Shown here: piece after piece, positions 21 to 5,839 of the stretch | Position numbering within the stretch: the stretch's first letter is position 1 | How the letters are laid out: each line of letters starts with the position of its first letter | Assembly: GCA_016188625.1 (NCBI GenBank) | Contig: JACPHL010000331.1 | Location: 1 to 5,839, forward strand | DNA from: Candidatus Rokuibacteriota bacterium | Lineage (GTDB): Bacteria > Methylomirabilota > Methylomirabilia > Rokubacteriales > JACPHL01 | Direction: 5' to 3' | Length of the DNA stretch: 5,839 bases | The notes under the pieces: model-generated | What the model saw: only the letters and a program-made list of their open reading frames with translations | Told to the model about the DNA's origin: nothing | Database searches by the model: none | Program-made: the position numbers and the translations under genes

Positions 21-59
21 AGATGCACCCGATGCGCGAGGCGAGGGTTCAGAGCCCGG

Positions 60-193
60 GGCGGACGGGTGGCGCGCCGGGCGGGGCGCCCCACGCGGCG
101 AGCCGGGGGACCCCACACCGGGCGGGGGTGGCGAGCCGCGTGGGGCTGCCCGGCGCGACAGGACCCGTCCGCCTCGCGGGAAGCCGTTCATGA
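60..193 (-). repeat. 134-bp inverted repeat, left copy
   Basis: The reverse complement of this stretch matches 5351-5484 at 132 of 134 positions. The differences are 110 versus 5434 and 185 versus 5359, and there are no gaps. Similarity stops abruptly on both sides. The inner end (TCATGA at 188-193) lies 10 bp before the rfbA start and runs directly into its ribosome binding site. The repeat is itself an imperfect palindrome, described under the right copy. I see no target-site duplication flanking it (CAGAGCCCGG outside, GAGGTCGCCT inside) and no convincing peptide in it. It is best read as a member of a dispersed intergenic repeat family. An element end is possible. Confidence 0.95.
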
Positions 194-203
194 GAGGTCG
201 CCT

Positions 204-1268
204 GTGAAGGGGCTGATCCTCTCGGGCGGGCGGGGGACCCGGCTCCGGCCCATCACCTACACGGCCGCCAAGCAGCTCGTCCCCATCGCCAACAAGCCGA
301 TCCTCTTCTACGGGATCGAGGCGATTGCGGCCTGCGGGATCACCGAGGTGGGGATCGTGGTGGGCGAGACGCGCCGGGAGATCGAGGAGGCGGTGGGGGA
401 CGGGTCCCGCTGGGGGGTCCGGGTCACCTACATCGAGCAGGAGGCCCCCCTCGGGCTCGCCCACGCGGTCCTGGTCTCCGAGGCCTACCTCGGGGAGGAG
501 CCGTTCGTGATGTACCTCGGGGACAACCTGGTCAAGGACGGGATCGTCCCCTTCGTCGAGGCCTTCCGCCGGGAGGCGCCCCACTGCCAGATCCTCCTGG
601 CCCGCGTCCCCAACCCGGAGCAGTTCGGGGTGGCGGAGCTCGTGGACGGGCGGGTGGTGCGGCTGATCGAGAAGCCGGCCCGCCCCCCCTCGGACCTCGC
701 CCTGGTCGGGGTCTACATGTTTGACCCCCACATCTTCGAGGCCGCCCGGGCGATCGCCCCCTCCTGGCGCGGGGAGCTGGAGATCACCGACGCGATCCAG
801 TACCTCATCGACAAGGGCTACACCGTCCATCCCCACGTCATCGCCGGGTGGTGGAAGGACACGGGGAAGCTCGAGGACATGCTGGAGGCGAACCGGATCA
901 TCCTGGACGCCCTCGTCCCCGCCGTCCGGGGCGAGGTGGACGCGGCCTCCGAGGTCCACGGCAAGGTGGTGGTGGAGGCCGAGGCCCGGGTGGTGCGGAG
1001 CCTGATCCGCGGCCCCGCCATCATCGGCCGCGGGGCCCTGATCGAGAACGCCTACGTCGGCCCCTTCACCTCGGTCGGGGACGGGGTGACCATCCGGGGG
1101 AGCGAGGTCGAGCACTCCATCATCCTGGAGGGGTCCTCCATCACCGACATCGGGGGGCGGATCGAGAACAGCCTGATCGGGCGCAACGTCGCCGTCTACC
1201 GGGCCGAGGCCAAGCCCCGGGCCTACCACCTCATGCTCGGCGACCGCTCCCAGATCGGGCTCGTGTGA
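204..1268 (+). CDS. rfbA: Glucose-1-phosphate thymidylyltransferase, long form (RmlA/RfbA)
   Basis: This 354-aa cytoplasmic enzyme makes dTDP-glucose from glucose-1-phosphate and dTTP, the first step to dTDP-L-rhamnose and other dTDP-sugars. The GTG start at 204 is chosen because GAGAGG (192-197) sits 6 bases upstream and the protein then opens with the nucleotidyltransferase signature LSGGRGTRLRP (residues 6-16). Other visible motifs are K23 and the PIANKP stretch (27-32), LGD with metal-binding Asp107, EKP (156-158), GELEITD (190-196) and WWKDTG (216-221). After about residue 245, hexapeptide-like repeats form a probable left-handed beta-helix domain. Short RmlA enzymes of about 290 aa lack this extension, and the length matches the long subfamily that includes StrD. 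Upstream in-frame codons from 69 are open but run through the inverted repeat and are not likely translated. The exact sugar or nucleotide preference cannot be read from sequence. Confidence 0.95.
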   Translation: MKGLILSGGRGTRLRPITYTAAKQLVPIANKPILFYGIEAIAACGITEVGIVVGETRREIEEAVGDGSRWGVRVTYIEQEAPLGLAHAVLVSEAYLGEEPFVMYLGDNLVKDGIVPFVEAFRREAPHCQILLARVPNPEQFGVAELVDGRVVRLIEKPARPPSDLALVGVYMFDPHIFEAARAIAPSWRGELEITDAIQYLIDKGYTVHPHVIAGWWKDTGKLEDMLEANRIILDALVPAVRGEVDAASEVHGKVVVEAEARVVRSLIRGPAIIGRGALIENAYVGPFTSVGDGVTIRGSEVEHSIILEGSSITDIGGRIENSLIGRNVAVYRAEAKPRAYHLMLGDRSQIGLV

Positions 1269-1275
1269 GGGCCCC

Positions 1276-1805
1276 GTGGAGCTGAGCGACGCGGCCAAGC
1301 GCGCCTTTCGGGTCCAGGACTACTCGGCCGCGCCCCCCATCGCCGGCGTGGAGGTCGTCGAGCTCGCCCGCCACACCGACGCTCCTTCACCGAGCTGGGC
1401 CGCTTCGCGGCCGGCGCCTCCCTGGCGTTCTCCGGCTTCGTCCTCGCCCAGGTGAACTACAGCGAGCTGGAGCCGGGGGCCATCAAGGCCTTCCACCTCC
1501 ACCGGCGGCAGACCGACATCTGGTACGTCCCGCCCGGCGACAAGGTGCTCCTGGTCCTCGTGGACGTCCGCGCCGGCTCGCCCACCGAGGGCGCGCGGCG
1601 GCGGCTGGTGCTCGGCGACGGCCGCTCGCGCCTGGTCCGGATCCCCCCCGGGGTGGCCCACGGCTGCAGGAACGTCGGCGCGGCGCGGGGGCGCATCATC
1701 TACTTCACCGACACGCCCTTCTCCCCCGAGCCCGAGGCCACGGACGAGGGGCGGCTCCCCTGGGACTTCGCGGGCGCCGAGGTCTGGGAGACCGCCCGGG
1801 AGTGA
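1276..1805 (+). pseudogene. rfbC: dTDP-4-dehydrorhamnose 3,5-epimerase-like gene (RmlC/RfbC), frameshifted
   Basis: Epimerase of the cupin fold acting on dTDP-4-dehydro-6-deoxyglucose, third step to dTDP-L-rhamnose. The gene is split between two frames. GTG at 1276, with GAGGG at 1267-1271 upstream, opens a frame giving 35 residues ending VVELARHTD (to 1380). From 1383 homology resumes one frame away as SFTELGRF and continues 140 residues to the stop at 1803-1805. The second part holds the cupin core: NYSELEPGAIKAFHLH, QTDIWYVPPGD, IPPGVAHG and a C-terminal TDEGRLPW. Read uninterrupted, the first frame would stop at 1453-1455 after 59 residues. Family members have D-x-R-G-x-F/L at the junction, and the R-G is missing here, so a deletion of 7 nt (or 4, or 1) explains it. 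It could be real inactivation or a sequencing/assembly error in a GC-rich run. A GTG at 1452 could start a shortened protein, but that lacks the first strands. Intact neighbours favour an error or a very recent mutation. Confidence 0.85.
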
Positions 1806-1818
1806 GGGCCCAGGCCCC

Positions 1819-2820
1819 ATGAGGATCCTCGTGACCGGCGGGGCCGGGTTCATCGGCCAAAACTTCGTCCGCTACCTCCAGGCCCGCCGCCCGGACCACT
1901 CCATCGTCAACCTCGACAAGCTCACCTACGCCGCCGACCGGGAGTTCGTCGAGGCCCCGGCCGCCGGCCCCGGCTACCAGTTCGTCCAGGAGGACATCTG
2001 CCGCCTCGAGAAGGTCCGGGAGATCGCCCGCGGGGTGGACGCCATCGTCAACTTCGCCGCCGAGACCCACGTGGATCGCTCGATCCTGGACCCGGGGAGC
2101 TTCATCCAGACCGACGTCTACGGGACCTTCGCCCTCCTCGAGGTCGTCCGGGAGCTCGGGATCCGCCGCTTCGTCCAGGTCTCCACCGACGAGGTGTACG
2201 GCTCGACCGAGGGGGGAGCGTTCTCCGAGGCATCCCCCCTGAACCCCTCGAACCCCTACTCGGCCTCCAAGGCCGCCGGGGACCTCATGGCGTTCGCCTA
2301 CTGGCGGACCCACCGGTTGCCCGTGCTCGTCACCCGGAGCTCCAACAACTTCGGCCCCTACCAGTACCCGGAGAAGGTCATCCCCCTCTTCATCACCAAC
2401 GCCCTCGACGACCTGCCGCTGCCGCTCTACGGCGACGGGAGGCACGTGCGGGACTGGCTCTATGTGATGGACAACTGCGCCGCCATCGATCTGGTCCTCC
2501 ACCGGGGACGGGAGGGGGAGGTCTACAACATCGGGGGCGGCCACGAGCTCCCGAACATCGAGCTGACCCGGCGGGTCCTGGCCCTCCTGGGGAAGCCCGA
2601 GTCCTTGATCCGCCACGTCGCCGATCGTCCCGGGCACGACCGCCGCTACGCCCTGGACTGCCGGAAGCTCCACGCCCTCGGCTGGCGCCCGACTCACGCC
2701 TTCGACGACGCCCTGGCGGAGACGGTCCGGTGGTACCAGGACCACGAGGCCTGGTGGCGCCCCCGGAAGGCTGGGGCCTTCCAGGAGTACTACCGGCGGC
2801 AGTACGGGGAGCTCGCGTGA
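1819..2820 (+). CDS. rfbB: dTDP-glucose 4,6-dehydratase (RmlB/RfbB)
   Basis: This 333-aa NAD-dependent, extended short-chain dehydrogenase/reductase converts dTDP-glucose to dTDP-4-dehydro-6-deoxyglucose, the second step of the pathway. Visible motifs are the Rossmann GGAGFIG (7-13), NLDKLTYA (31-38) as in RmlB enzymes, ETHVDRSI (82-89), the catalytic Thr-Asp-Glu in STDEVYG (122-128), the Tyr147/Lys151 pair in PYSASK, RSSNNFGPYQYPEK (173-186) and the C-terminal DRPGHDRRYA (269-278). These are the family's diagnostic blocks and the length is usual. ATG at 1819 follows GAGGG (1804-1808) by 10 bases, 13 bp after the rfbC stop. It ends in a 4-bp overlap with rfbD, implying coupled translation. 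Nothing appears damaged. Confidence 0.97.
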   Translation: MRILVTGGAGFIGQNFVRYLQARRPDHSIVNLDKLTYAADREFVEAPAAGPGYQFVQEDICRLEKVREIARGVDAIVNFAAETHVDRSILDPGSFIQTDVYGTFALLEVVRELGIRRFVQVSTDEVYGSTEGGAFSEASPLNPSNPYSASKAAGDLMAFAYWRTHRLPVLVTRSSNNFGPYQYPEKVIPLFITNALDDLPLPLYGDGRHVRDWLYVMDNCAAIDLVLHRGREGEVYNIGGGHELPNIELTRRVLALLGKPESLIRHVADRPGHDRRYALDCRKLHALGWRPTHAFDDALAETVRWYQDHEAWWRPRKAGAFQEYYRRQYGELA

Positions 2821-3656
2821 GGATCGCCGTCACCGGGGCCGGCGGGATGCTCGGGCAAGACCTCTGCCGGATCCTCGGGGTCCGGCACGAGGTCTATCCC
2901 TTCGGGCGCGCCGACCTCGACGTCACCGACCCCGACGCGGTCGCCGAGGCGCTCGCCCGGCTTGCCCCCCAGGTGGTCGTCCACGCCGCCGGCTGGACCG
3001 ACGTGGACGGCTGCGAGCGGGACCCCGACCGCGCCTTCCGGGTCAACACCCTCGGGAGCCGGTACGTGGCGGCGGCCGCGGCCTCGGTAGGGGCGGCGCT
3101 CTGCTACCTCTCGACCGACTACGTCTTCGACGGGGCGAAGAAGGCCCCCTACACCGAGTGGGACCCCCCGAGCCCGCTCTCGGTCTACGGCGCCTCGAAG
3201 CTCGCCGGCGAGCGGGAGGTCCGGGCCCTCTGCCCCCGCCACTGGATCGTCCGGACCTCCTGGCTCTACGGGCCGGGCCGCAACTTCGTGGCCGCCATCC
3301 TCGCCCAGGCCGCCCGGGGCGGGCCCCTCCGGGTCGTGGACGACCAGGTCGGCTCGCCCACCTACACCGAGGACCTGGCCGGCGGGCTCGCCGCGCTCCT
3401 CGAGACCGCCCGCTTCGGGGTCTACCACCTCACCAACGCCGGCCTCTGCTCCTGGTTCCAGTTCGCCACTGCCATCCTCGAGGCCGCCGGGCTCCGGGTC
3501 CCCATCGAGCCGATCCCCTCGAGCGCGCTGGACCGCCCCGCTCCCCGCCCCCCCTACTCCGTCCTCCGGAACGCCTGCTGGGAGCTGGAGGGGCGTCCGC
3601 CCCTCCGCCCCTGGCCCGAGGCCCTCCGAGCCTATCTCGCCCGGGTTCACCCCTAA
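2817..3656 (+). CDS. rfbD: dTDP-4-dehydrorhamnose reductase (RmlD/RfbD)
   Basis: This 279-aa NAD(P)H-dependent reductase makes dTDP-L-rhamnose in the last step of the pathway. GTG at 2817 overlaps the rfbB stop (GTGA, 2817-2820), the classic arrangement for translational coupling. The protein then opens with the cofactor motif GAGGMLG (7-13). Other family blocks are RADLDVTD (31-38), HAAGWTDVD (56-64), STDYVFDG (99-106), the catalytic Tyr124/Lys128 in YGASKLAGE, RTSWLYGPGRNFV (146-158), DQVGSPTYTEDLA (176-188) and RPPYSVLRN (244-252). Length is typical for RmlD. It closes the rfb set, and a hairpin follows 7 bp after the TAA stop. Confidence 0.96.
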   Translation: MRIAVTGAGGMLGQDLCRILGVRHEVYPFGRADLDVTDPDAVAEALARLAPQVVVHAAGWTDVDGCERDPDRAFRVNTLGSRYVAAAAASVGAALCYLSTDYVFDGAKKAPYTEWDPPSPLSVYGASKLAGEREVRALCPRHWIVRTSWLYGPGRNFVAAILAQAARGGPLRVVDDQVGSPTYTEDLAGGLAALLETARFGVYHLTNAGLCSWFQFATAILEAAGLRVPIEPIPSSALDRPAPRPPYSVLRNACWELEGRPPLRPWPEALRAYLARVHP

Positions 3657-3661
3657 TCGAC

Positions 3662-3685
3662 TCGGAGGGGGCTGACGCCCTCCAA
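3662..3685 (+). terminator. Hairpin after rfbD, possible terminator
   Basis: GGAGGG (3664-3669) can pair with CCCTCC (3678-3683); an alternative inner stem is GGGC/GCCC around a TGAC loop. It starts 7 bp after the rfbD stop, where the transcript would be expected to end. No T-run follows, so an intrinsic terminator of the standard type is not shown. The sequence resembles the hairpin at 5573-5601, as both begin TCGGA and share a GGGGGC core. Confidence 0.5.
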
Positions 3686-3774
3686 CCGGGCGCCCCGTCG
3701 GTCTGACTCCGCTGGGGGGTGTCGGCCCCGAGCGGAACGTTAAGCGGAGCGGCGCGGGTCCCCGTCATGAGCGA

Positions 3775-3831
3775 GCCGGGTGGGGAAGCCGACAGGCGAG
3801 CGGAAGACAAACAGGAGGGGCCCCGCCCGGC
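3775..3831 (+). other. Stem-loop with 11-bp stem and 35-nt purine-rich loop
   Basis: GCCGGGTGGGG (3775-3785) pairs with CCCCGCCCGGC (3821-3831) along 11 positions, one of them a G-U wobble in RNA. The enclosed loop (3786-3820) is rich in A and G and contains a small possible GCC/GGC hairpin. Such a layout could be a leader RNA, a small RNA, or simply chance pairing in GC-rich DNA. The G-U pair hints at an RNA on the + strand, but one pair is not evidence of selection. Confidence 0.35.
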
Positions 3832-3875
3832 GAGCCATAGACGGGTGCGCCGCGGGGCGTGTGGAGCGAGGGGTC

Positions 3876-3903
3876 GGCGCCCCCCGGGGGGGCGGGCGCC
3901 TTT
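3876..3903 (+). terminator. GC hairpin followed by TTT upstream of the HD gene
   Basis: GGCGCCC (3876-3882) pairs with GGGCGCC (3894-3900), enclosing an 11-nt C/G loop that can also fold as a C-run/G-run stem. TTT follows at 3901-3903. This resembles an intrinsic terminator with a minimal T-tract and would separate rfb transcription from the HD gene. It also lies just ahead of the candidate -10 element, so it could influence that promoter. Confidence 0.4.
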
Positions 3904-3924
3904 CCCCGCCCGGGCGGTCCGTGC

Positions 3925-3930
3925 TATCGT
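3925..3930 (+). promoter_or_regulatory. Candidate -10 box for a leaderless HD-gene transcript
   Basis: TATCGT occupies -12 to -7 relative to ATG 3937 and fits the TANNNT pattern placed just before leaderless genes. It is preceded by TG one base upstream (GTGC), an extended -10 feature. The only Shine-Dalgarno-like run, GAGG at 3931-3934, is 2 bases from the ATG, too close to work well, which supports a leaderless start. The expected -35 position (around 3902-3907, TTCCCC) is a poor match. Confidence 0.4.
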
Positions 3931-3936
3931 GAGGCC

Positions 3937-5340
3937 ATGGTAGGGGCCGAGACCTATCGCGGCAAGGGGCTGATCGCCGACCCGATCCACCGCTACATCC
4001 TCTACACCCGGCCCGAGGGCGGGCTCCCGGGGGAGGCGACCGAGCAGGACCTGATCGACACCCCCTGGGTCCAGCGCCTCCGGCGGATCCCCCAGCTCCA
4101 GTCGGCCCGGTGGGTCTTCCCGACCGCCGAGCACAGCCGCTTCCAGCACGCCCTGGGGGCGATGCACGTGGCGGGCCGCTTCGCCCAGCACCTCTACCCT
4201 TCCCTCCGGGCCCTCCACCCCGACTGCCCCTCGGCCCCCCTCGTCGAGGAGCTCCTCCGCATGGCCGGCCTCCTCCACGACGTCGGCCACGGCCCCTTCG
4301 GGCACTTCTTCGACGACAACTTCCTCGCCGACTTCGGCCTGACCCACGAGATGGTGGGCCAGAAGATTATCCGGGAGGAGCTGGGGGAGGTCATCCGGGG
4401 GCTCCGCCGGAGCCCCTCGGGGGCCTTCGCCGACGGCGAGGCGATCGATCCGGAGTGGATCTGCTACCTGATGGGGAAGGGGTACACCCGCCTCGAGGAG
4501 GGGCAGCCCCGCTGGCTCGCCTTCCTCAAGCCGCTCCTCTCCGGGATCTACACCGCGGACAACCTCGACTACGTCCTCCGGGACGCCTACATGTGCGGGG
4601 TCGCGGTCGGGCCCGTGGACCTCGACCGGATCATCTACTACTCGTTCTTCTCCGAGGAGGGGCTCACCCTGGACCGGGGCGGGACGAGCGCCCTCATCAT
4701 GTTCCTCACCGCGCGCTACTACATGTACACCAACGTCTACTACCACCGGACGACCCGGGCCATCGATCTCCACCTCAAGGAGATCTTTCGCGACACCATG
4801 CGGATCGTCTACCCCACCGATCCCCGCCGGGACCTCCACCCCTACCTCCACCTGACCGAGTGGACCCTCCTCGAGGAGGTGGGACGCTGGCACGACGCCG
4901 CCGAGCCCGAGCGGCGCGCCCTGGGGGCCGAGTGGCGCCAGATCCTGGACCGGCGGCTCAAGTGGCGGATGGTCCACGAGGAGATCCTGGACGACTCCAT
5001 GGTCAAGATCTGGCGGCTGGTGCGGCCGGACATCGTGGCCGCCCAGGTCAAGGAGGCCCTCCCCCGCGCCCTCAAGGAAGTGGAATTCCAGATCGACATG
5101 GCCTTCCAGGACCCGCGCCCGCTCAACCCCCTGGCGATGGGGGACCGGCAGATCTACATCTACGACAGCTCGACGGGGCAGGTCTCCAAAGAGCCCCTCG
5201 CCGCGCTCTTCAAGTACCTCCCCGGCAAGGTGGCCCAGTGCCGGATCTTCGCGCGGGACCACCGCCACGATCAGGAGCTGACGGAGGCGTTCCGGCGGGT
5301 CCTCTACGAGGATCAGCCTTCGATCCCCACCAATGTTTAG
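3937..5340 (+). CDS. HD-domain phosphohydrolase, SAMHD1/dGTPase-like (COG1078-type)
   Basis: This 467-aa, probably cytoplasmic protein has no signal peptide or membrane segment. ATG at 3937 is chosen because the family-like N-terminus KGLIADPIHRYI starts ten residues later and the upstream reading runs through hairpins. Motifs: DTPWVQRLRRIPQL (41-54), the region holding the first metal His, EHSRFQHALG (65-74, His71), the HD core LLHDVGHGPFGHFF (112-125, His114-Asp115, with His118 and His123), and TADNLDYVLRDAYMCGV (206-222), where Asp208 corresponds to the last metal ligand and Asp211-Tyr212 to the D-Y following it. These match HD phosphohydrolases related to SAMHD1 and dNTPases. The C-terminal part (about 240-467) is helical-looking and less recognisable. 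A dNTP or other phosphoester substrate is inferred from family only; the actual substrate is unknown. It follows the rfb cluster after 280 bp and ends 10 bp before the right inverted repeat, with no evident link to rhamnose synthesis. Confidence 0.9.
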   Translation: MVGAETYRGKGLIADPIHRYILYTRPEGGLPGEATEQDLIDTPWVQRLRRIPQLQSARWVFPTAEHSRFQHALGAMHVAGRFAQHLYPSLRALHPDCPSAPLVEELLRMAGLLHDVGHGPFGHFFDDNFLADFGLTHEMVGQKIIREELGEVIRGLRRSPSGAFADGEAIDPEWICYLMGKGYTRLEEGQPRWLAFLKPLLSGIYTADNLDYVLRDAYMCGVAVGPVDLDRIIYYSFFSEEGLTLDRGGTSALIMFLTARYYMYTNVYYHRTTRAIDLHLKEIFRDTMRIVYPTDPRRDLHPYLHLTEWTLLEEVGRWHDAAEPERRALGAEWRQILDRRLKWRMVHEEILDDSMVKIWRLVRPDIVAAQVKEALPRALKEVEFQIDMAFQDPRPLNPLAMGDRQIYIYDSSTGQVSKEPLAALFKYLPGKVAQCRIFARDHRHDQELTEAFRRVLYEDQPSIPTNV

Positions 5341-5350
5341 CCGCGATTAG

Positions 5351-5484
5351 TCATGAACCGCTTCCCGCGAGGCGGACGGGTCCTGTCGCGCCGGGCAGCC
5401 CCACGCGGCTCGCCACCCCCGCCCGGTGTGGGGCCCCCCGGCTCGCCGCGTGGGGCGCCCCGCCCGGCGCGCCACCCGTCCGCC
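5351..5484 (+). repeat. 134-bp inverted repeat, right copy, internally palindromic
   Basis: This is the partner of 60-193 in opposite orientation, with two substitutions in 134 positions. It begins 10 bp after the HD-gene stop. From 5371 to 5484 it can fold into one long hairpin with three perfect stems: 5371-5381 with 5474-5484 (11 bp), 5387-5396 with 5462-5471 (10 bp), and 5398-5409 with 5445-5456 (12 bp). Small unequal internal loops separate the stems and the terminal loop is 35 nt. The first 20 bases (5351-5370) are outside the hairpin and form the end that faces the gene block in both copies. I see no flanking target-site duplication. It could be a REPIN-like or MITE-like element, or a two-way transcription terminator. 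Confidence 0.95.
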
Positions 5485-5537
5485 GTCCGCTGGCCGCGCT
5501 CCGGACCCTCGGCACGAGGATGGGTGGTCCGCTCCGA

Positions 5538-5556
5538 GCGCGGGCTTGGCCCGCGC
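5538..5556. other. Tight 8-bp hairpin
   Basis: GCGCGGGC (5538-5545) and GCCCGCGC (5549-5556) form a perfect 8-bp stem around a TTG loop. It lies between the right inverted repeat and the final gene. No T-run follows on either side. It may be a short REP-like palindrome or part of a terminator region for the HD gene. Confidence 0.5.
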
Positions 5557-5572
5557 AGCCTTGGGGGGAGGT

Positions 5573-5601
5573 TCGGAAGGGGGGCGTTAGCCCCCCTCCG
5601 A
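5573..5601. terminator. Strong bulged hairpin upstream of the last gene
   Basis: TCGGA (5573-5577) pairs with TCCGA (5597-5601), and GGGGGGC (5579-5585) with GCCCCCC (5590-5596), around a GTTA loop with a single bulged A at 5578. That gives 12 base pairs, mostly G-C. TTT at 5603-5605 lies close behind on the + strand. It ends 10 bases before the next start codon, so it may terminate HD-gene transcription or sit in the leader of the last gene. It resembles the hairpin after rfbD. Confidence 0.5.
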
Positions 5602-5611
5602 GTTTAGGGCC

Positions 5612-5839
5612 ATGGATATCCTCGACATCAAGGCGCGGGTCGCCGAGGCGGTCGTGGAGTCCATCTTCCGCCGGGCCCGCTACAAGCTCACCCCCTACGC
5701 GCGGTCGGGGGCGGCCCCGGTGCTCCGGATCGGGCGGGAGGACTTCACCCCCGACTTCACGGCGGCCCAGACCGCCGAGACGCGGGGGGAGGCGAGCCCG
5801 GGGCCGCCCCAGTCCTTCCTGATCGCGGTCAAGTATCGG
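5612..5839 (+). CDS. Unrecognised protein, N-terminal 76 codons, cut by the window end
   Basis: ATG at 5612 is the first usable start because TAG at 5588-5590 closes the frame just upstream. The visible 76 residues begin MDILDIKARVAEAVVESIF, a likely amphipathic helix, followed by a basic RRARYK stretch (20-25). Then come VLRIGREDFTPDF (42-54), a Pro/Gly/Glu-rich segment, and FLIAVKYR (69-76), which looks like a beta strand. A beta strand ending in a lysine after acidic residues is loosely reminiscent of restriction-like nuclease folds, but the E-x-K motif is not present and I do not assign a family. AGGG at 5606-5609 is only 2 bases from the ATG, the same close spacing as at the HD gene. Codon use matches the neighbours, so it is probably a real gene. 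Confidence 0.75.
   Translation, partial: MDILDIKARVAEAVVESIFRRARYKLTPYARSGAAPVLRIGREDFTPDFTAAQTAETRGEASPGPPQSFLIAVKYR

What the first reader, a model, noticed from the sequence alone, without database searches (positions are those of the whole stretch)
60..5484. Near-identical 134-bp inverted repeats bracket the rfb cluster plus HD gene
Positions 60-193 and the reverse complement of 5351-5484 agree at 132 of 134 positions without gaps, and their same ends face inward. Between them lie five genes and no transposase or recombinase. The match is far too long for chance. Possible meanings are two members of a dispersed repeat family, ends of a non-autonomous mobile unit carrying a rhamnose module, or a segment invertible by homologous recombination. 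No target-site duplication is visible around either copy or around the whole unit.
Basis: partly seen in the sequence, partly recalled or inferred. Interest (0 to 1): 0.75.

Follow-up and report, generated by a model that had tools for sequence, protein, structure and literature searches.

The report
Hitchhiking hairpin repeats, not a bracket
The two matching repeats are ordinary scattered copies of a tiny jumping element that happen to flank a conserved sugar-gene cluster, but the core of that element is an uncatalogued, strongly conserved folded hairpin that turns up in several different jumping elements across three bacterial phyla.

Summary
In detail: 60-193 and the reverse complement of 5351-5484 match at 132/134. 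The bracket itself means little. The source genome (a Rokubacteriales MAG) holds about 14 near-complete copies scattered singly, and copy 1 is closer to copies on other contigs than to its partner. Relatives keep the same rml-HD gene order. The 134 bp is the core of a ~181-bp miniature element with ~20-bp terminal inverted repeats and YTAR target sites. IS1380-family (PF13701) transposons of relatives have the same ends, so these are IS1380-type MITEs. Both window copies have lost their outer end. The unexpected part is the core: an imperfect hairpin of ~95-165 nt with strong covariation (469 double-change cells, score 0.42 versus at most 0.08 when slid). It has no Rfam match. It occurs in up to at least 37 copies per genome in Methylomirabilota, Nitrospirota and Pseudomonadota, inside MITEs with several unrelated end sequences. 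In two families the frame diverges far less than the ends or a ~57-nt loop in its middle, which suggests selection on the fold. Its function is unknown: RNA is favoured, a single-stranded DNA hairpin is not excluded. No invertible segment or composite transposon is supported.

The parts
59..194 (+). Copy 1 of the miniature element: core plus degraded inner end; the outer terminal repeat is missing
   Evidence: Model R1 match 59-174; alignment with other copies
59..174 (+). Conserved hairpin core of copy 1
   Evidence: R1 103.5 bits, R2 94 bits; folds with z about -5 as RNA or DNA
5338..5494 (-). Copy 2 of the miniature element: core plus one terminal repeat; the outer terminal repeat is missing
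5370..5485 (-). Conserved hairpin core of copy 2
   Evidence: R1 99.7 bits, R2 90.9 bits
5338..5359 (+). Surviving terminal inverted repeat of copy 2, TAGCCGCGATTAGTCATGAACC; its TAG is the stop codon of the HD gene
   Evidence: 3 mismatches to the consensus end; HD ORF ends at 5340
204..1268 (+). rml nucleotidyltransferase gene (RmlA-like), start just after the copy-1 remnant; neighbour, not part of the element
   Evidence: PF00483
1819..3656 (+). rmlB and rmlD; neighbours, not part of the element
   Evidence: same neighbourhood in relatives
3937..5340 (+). HD-domain gene, conserved in 37 of 40 relatives; neighbour, not part of the element

Best explanation
The two repeats are decayed, independently inserted copies of one dispersed, non-autonomous miniature element (about 181 bp) with the ends of IS1380-family insertion sequences. 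An IS1380-type DDE transposase acting in trans is inferred to have moved it into YTAR sites, which often lie at gene stop codons. The element carries no protein gene. Its body is a conserved imperfect hairpin that folds as one strand and keeps its pairing through compensatory change. Shown: dispersal, terminal repeats, shared ends with IS1380 transposons of relatives, YTAR site use, conserved fold, low divergence of the frame in two families, presence of the fold in several unrelated end chassis and three phyla. Inferred: movement by IS1380 transposase; that the fold acts as a structured RNA (or a single-stranded DNA hairpin) kept for its own sake; that the bracketing of the rml-HD genes is chance.
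For: About 14 near-complete scattered copies. Terminal repeat: 17 hits in the genome against 0 for the reversed control. The same ends lie on both sides of 8 PF13701 loci, at 1-6 mismatches per end against 6-8 for the best of 200 shuffled patterns; a blind end search recovers an IS1380 transposon in a Verrucomicrobia MAG. Target sites YTAR, direct 11 against inverted 1 among 49 non-palindromic pairs. Copy 1 is nearer to C232, C131, C309 and C214 than to copy 2. rml-HD neighbourhood kept in relatives. Fold: 14 of 32 pairs covary on a sequence-only alignment; 469 double-change cells, score 0.422 against 0.133 shuffled and at most 0.078 slid; no Rfam match. Frame divergence 0.6-4.5% against 8-25% for the loop in its middle and 9-33% for the flanks including the ends.
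Against: No IS1380 transposase found in this genome, which is 84% complete. Movement was not observed. Leaving out CTAG pairs, equality of the two target copies is not above shuffled pairs. Alignments A3-A5 are fitted to the model, which favours the structure. No transcript data.
Confidence: 0.82

Rival explanations
1. The core is a single-stranded DNA hairpin recognised by a protein (for example an HUH-type transposase or a host factor) rather than an RNA.
For: Imperfect hairpins with conserved bulges are recognised as DNA in REP/RAYT, IS200/IS605 and integron attC systems (general knowledge). Random orientation to genes. Inverted pairs of cores lie close together in the Gammaproteobacterial genome.
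Against: The elements end in DDE-type terminal repeats with YTAR target sites, not in the end anatomy expected of an HUH element. HUH genes were not searched for. The excess of G-U over A-C (81 to 26) fits RNA at least as well.
Confidence: 0.25
2. The repeats are the ends of one non-autonomous mobile unit that carries the rml-HD genes.
For: Inverted arms with no transposase between them.
Against: The copies are members of a scattered family, are not closest relatives, and are separately truncated MITEs; rml-HD is the ancestral gene order.
Confidence: 0.02
3. The segment between the repeats inverts by homologous recombination.
For: A 134-bp inverted repeat at 99% identity could recombine.
Against: No positive evidence; nothing in the arrangement needs it, and no reads are available to test it.
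Confidence: 0.05
4. The core is only structural ballast of the MITE: a long palindrome that stays similar through recent spread, gene conversion or assembly collapse.
For: Own-genome cores differ by only 0-5 positions in most pairs while the ends differ far more; short-read assemblies can homogenise repeats.
Against: In other genomes the loop in the middle of the frame has diverged 8-25% while the frame on both sides has diverged 0.6-4.5%; compensatory changes across three phyla and unrelated ends.
Confidence: 0.15

Closest known systems
IS1380-family insertion sequences (PF13701 transposases; e.g. IS1247)
   Same: Terminal repeats of the MITEs match those of PF13701 transposons in relatives; full elements of 1.5-1.7 kb, against 1672 bp for IS1247 (PMC3281130).
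   Different: The MITE has no transposase and its folded core was not found in the full-length elements tested. IS1247 is listed with a 5-bp direct repeat; here 4 bp (YTAR) are inferred.
Bacterial MITEs and repeats such as ERIC/RU-1 (127 bp), RU-2
   Same: Short, intergenic, multi-copy, able to fold into long hairpins, often at gene 3' ends and sometimes overlapping stop codons (PMC2759123 abstract; PMC2674063).
   Different: No sequence relation was tested. Here one fold is shared by MITEs with unrelated ends and across phyla.
MITEPye1 of Paracoccus yeei (IS1182-type MITE)
   Same: Insertion-sequence-derived MITE that folds into a long stem-loop (PMC11578231).
   Different: Different IS family; covariation or sharing of the fold among families was not seen in the passages read.
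REP/BIME elements with RAYT transposases
   Same: Dispersed imperfect palindromes; close inverted pairs in the Gammaproteobacterial genome.
   Different: REPs are much shorter and have no IS1380-type terminal repeats (general knowledge); an associated tyrosine transposase was not looked for.

Membership tests
MITE | Short element without a transposase gene | tested here: met
   About 181 bp, no gene of its own
MITE | Terminal inverted repeats | tested here: met
   17 end matches, paired in most complete copies
MITE | Target-site duplication | tested here: inconclusive
   YTAR at both ends; direct 11 against inverted 1 of 49 informative pairs, but equality outside CTAG pairs is not above shuffled pairs
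MITE | Multiple dispersed copies | tested here: met
   About 14 near-complete copies
IS1380-derived | Ends shared with IS1380-family (PF13701) transposons | tested here: met
   8 full-length loci with paired ends, and L238
IS1380-derived | IS1380 transposase present in the same genome | tested here: not met
   No PF13701 match in G000, which is 84% complete; lowers certainty about the present source, not about the end match
IS1380-derived | Mobilised by the transposase | not testable with these tools
   Needs a transposition assay
Composite or bracketed mobile unit | Repeats that pair around cargo more than chance | tested here: not met
   Single scattered copies; ancestral gene order between them
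Any of the 4227 Rfam 15 families | Match to the family's covariance model | tested here: not met
   No match at E <= 1 on the window; one off-core chance-level match at E <= 5 on ten relatives
Structured RNA | Compensatory changes beyond controls | tested here: met
Structured RNA | Is transcribed | not testable with these tools
   No expression data

The most novel reading that the evidence does not exclude
An undescribed structured RNA (or single-stranded DNA hairpin) of ~95-165 nt, conserved across Methylomirabilota, Nitrospirota and Pseudomonadota, spreads by being housed in MITEs of several different transposon groups. The fold is kept under selection that is independent of the transposon ends, as a function of its own (host-useful or selfish).
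Probability: 0.4. Interest if true: 0.8.

Novelty: new variant of a known kind. Interest (0 to 1): 0.6.

Why it matters
MITEs are usually treated as empty deletion derivatives. Here one folded module recurs inside MITEs with unrelated ends in three phyla, and in two families its frame changes far less than the ends needed for movement. If it is a functional RNA, it shows transposons distributing a non-coding RNA in tens of copies per genome, and it gives a defined covariance model with which to look for transcripts and partners. For the original finding, it shows that inverted repeats around a gene cluster need not mark a mobile unit.

Tried and rejected
IS630 (TA duplication) as the source: no DDE_3 match in the genome, and the ends matched IS1380 instead. 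Fold carried inside full-length IS1380 elements: not found in 17 loci. Insertion preference for stop codons beyond what the YTAR motif gives: 15 of 39 ends against 8 of 35 background sites, not significant. The ~57-nt copy-specific loop as a guide segment: copies at apparently orthologous sites (L308/L329, L305/L311) have unrelated loops while close paralogues share them, so fast drift is simpler. A fixed cis-regulatory role: orientation to genes is random, 20 versus 20, with none among 51 called cases between divergent genes. Frame words in viral contigs: none. An exact scan of the GTDB contigs with the own-genome core word: none. Literature searches for IS1380 MITEs with a noncoding RNA, or for structured noncoding RNA in MITEs, returned nothing relevant. 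A first tblastn with a wrongly framed ORF of L094 was discarded and redone with the true transposase.

Full report
Observation. The inverted repeat is real: 60-193 and 5351-5484, 134 nt, 99% complementary, 5157 nt apart. The window is a complete contig, C169, of an incomplete MAG (2.60 Mb, 344 contigs, 84% complete). Contig lengths and coordinates of several relatives in the genome search coincide with named Candidatus Rokubacteria/Rokuibacteriota records, so the source is a member of that order (Rokubacteriales by general knowledge).

The bracket is a coincidence. The 134-bp sequence has about 14 near-complete copies in this genome, on 13 contigs, none of the others paired around cargo. Copy 1 is identical to the C232 copy over the compared core, differs at 1 position from the C131, C309 and C214 copies, and at 2 from its supposed partner. 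With about 15 copies in 2.6 Mb, roughly 0.4 neighbouring pairs within 5.3 kb are expected by chance, half of them inverted (own arithmetic). The HD protein is matched in 37 of 40 relatives. rml genes (rmlB and/or rmlD) lie beside it in nearly all of the 19 fetched loci, and in four of them the gene that follows copy 2 comes next after HD. The gene block is therefore the ancestral locus, and the elements are later arrivals.

What the repeat is. Aligning copies with their flanks shows a longer element, CTAGCCGGGATTATTCATGAACG...CGTTCATGAATAATC(C/G)CGGCTAG, about 181 bp. The terminal repeat occurs 17 times in the genome at up to 3 mismatches, against 0 for the reversed control. The same ends, with other interiors, occur in relatives and in many phyla. 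In relatives, eight full-length PF13701 (IS1380-family) loci carry this repeat just outside the transposase on both sides, at 1-6 mismatches per end against 6-8 for the best of 200 shuffled patterns; the more distantly related transposases L098, L101, L103 and L122 do not. In reverse, an exact scan of all GTDB contigs for the end recovered L238, a 1689-bp element whose transposase is 42.5% identical to that of L094. Target sites are YTAR; where they are not palindromic they agree as direct repeats in 11 and as inverted repeats in 1 of 49 pairs, though leaving out CTAG pairs equality is not above shuffled pairs. The family is therefore IS1380-type MITEs. No PF13701 gene was found in this genome. 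In the window, copy 2 keeps its inner end (5338-5359), whose TAG is the stop codon of the HD gene; copy 1 has a degraded inner end running into the start of rmlA; both outer ends are gone. Placement at stop codons is explained well enough by the target motif: 15 of 39 ends against 8 of 35 background YTAR sites, not significant.

The unexpected part: a conserved fold. Other genera gave matches to the core at 82-85% without recognisable ends. Fetching them showed the same imperfect hairpin with different stems. On a sequence-only alignment of 12 copies, 14 of 32 predicted pairs have compensated double changes. A covariance model found 1-15 copies in 16 of 59 relatives. An extended model found matches in 20 of 95 genomes, including two other families of the class; in at least 37 copies in a Gammaproteobacteria MAG; and in 1-11 copies in four Nitrospirota MAGs and a Methylomirabilota MAG. 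G086 and G104 appear to be the same genome, since their match coordinates coincide. On 90 distinct sequences, 92.4% of cells pair, 469 cells are double changes, and the covariation score is 0.422 against 0.133 shuffled and at most 0.078 with partners slid. This alignment is fitted to the model, so the slid and shuffled controls and the unfitted alignment matter. G-U exceeds A-C 81 to 26 among mispairs of the outer helices (part of this comes from one conserved G-U pair), which marks one strand as the folded one. There was no Rfam 15 match.

Anatomy of the fold (read). An outer stem of free sequence ends in CGGGU/ACCCG. Next come conserved GG and ACAGG internal-loop sides, a second free stem, often a 4-G bulge, a third stem, and an apical domain of three kinds: a fixed module CCGGGGGACCCCACACCGGGCGGGGGUGG (this genome), a fixed module GCAGCGGAAGGGCCCCACUGGGGGAUGGGUGGAGCGAG (three phyla), or a loop of about 57 nt that differs between copies.

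Chassis. The fold is found between the IS1380 ends above; between CTAACCCCAATCCGAAAATA ends, which also bound two other PF13701 transposases, L107 and L123; and between CTAGTRTTCCGT, CTAATACAAACG and other ends whose transposase was not identified. In many matches no clear terminal repeats were found around the fold, so whether those are decayed MITEs is open. In the Gammaproteobacterial element L198, fold and IS1380 ends occur together. The fold was not inside the full-length insertion sequences tested.

Constraint. In two paralogous families the two halves of the frame differ by 0.6-1.8% and 3-4.5%, the loop between them by 8% and 25%, and the flanks including the ends by 9-33% (one member, L359, has an unrelated left flank that inflates the highest figure). 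Assembly collapse or recent origin would not spare the loop lying in the middle. This suggests selection on the fold itself. Orientation relative to genes is random (20 versus 20), and none of 51 called cases lies between divergent genes, so a fixed cis-regulatory role is unlikely.

Mechanism, with status. Shown by sequence: dispersed MITE, IS1380 ends, YTAR sites, conserved and covarying fold, several chassis, three phyla. Inferred: mobilisation in trans by IS1380 transposases; the fold acting as RNA (favoured) or single-stranded DNA; selection for its own activity. Unknown: partner, transcript, benefit.

Limits. All genomes are MAGs or unnamed; copy numbers are lower bounds because contigs break at the repeats (for example C232, C139 and C99 end in or near a copy) and only the best candidates are scored. 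Phylum assignments outside the order rest on the record titles.

Noticed in passing
window 5496-5612 (and probably the left end of the same repeat at about 3659): A second, far more abundant dispersed repeat (CTCGGAGGGGGGCTAACGCCCCCCTTCCGAACCTCCCCCC...GGAGCGGACC): 103 hits to one 21-bp word in the genome against 1 in the control, usually at gene ends and with CTAG near both ends, so possibly another MITE family. It abuts copy 2, and a similar stretch abuts several other copies.
   Followed up: partly
window about 1277-1805: The rmlC gene is split by a frameshift near 1380; only the C-terminal part is an open frame. It could be a sequencing error of the MAG or a real lesion.
   Followed up: no
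L338-L371 (G037, G028, G033, G019, G025): The ~57-nt variable loop keeps its length and a purine-rich GGAAA-like stretch followed by a small hairpin, so it may itself be structured.
   Followed up: partly
L399-L430 (G095, Gammaproteobacteria MAG): Cores occur as close inverted pairs about 40-45 nt apart, with ends containing the palindrome GAATCCGGCCGGATTC, like a BIME arrangement.
   Followed up: no
L174-L279: IS1380-type ends bound short elements of about 65-300 bp in many phyla (Nitrospirota, Planctomycetota, Myxococcota, Kiritimatiellota, Armatimonadota and others) with other interiors.
   Followed up: partly
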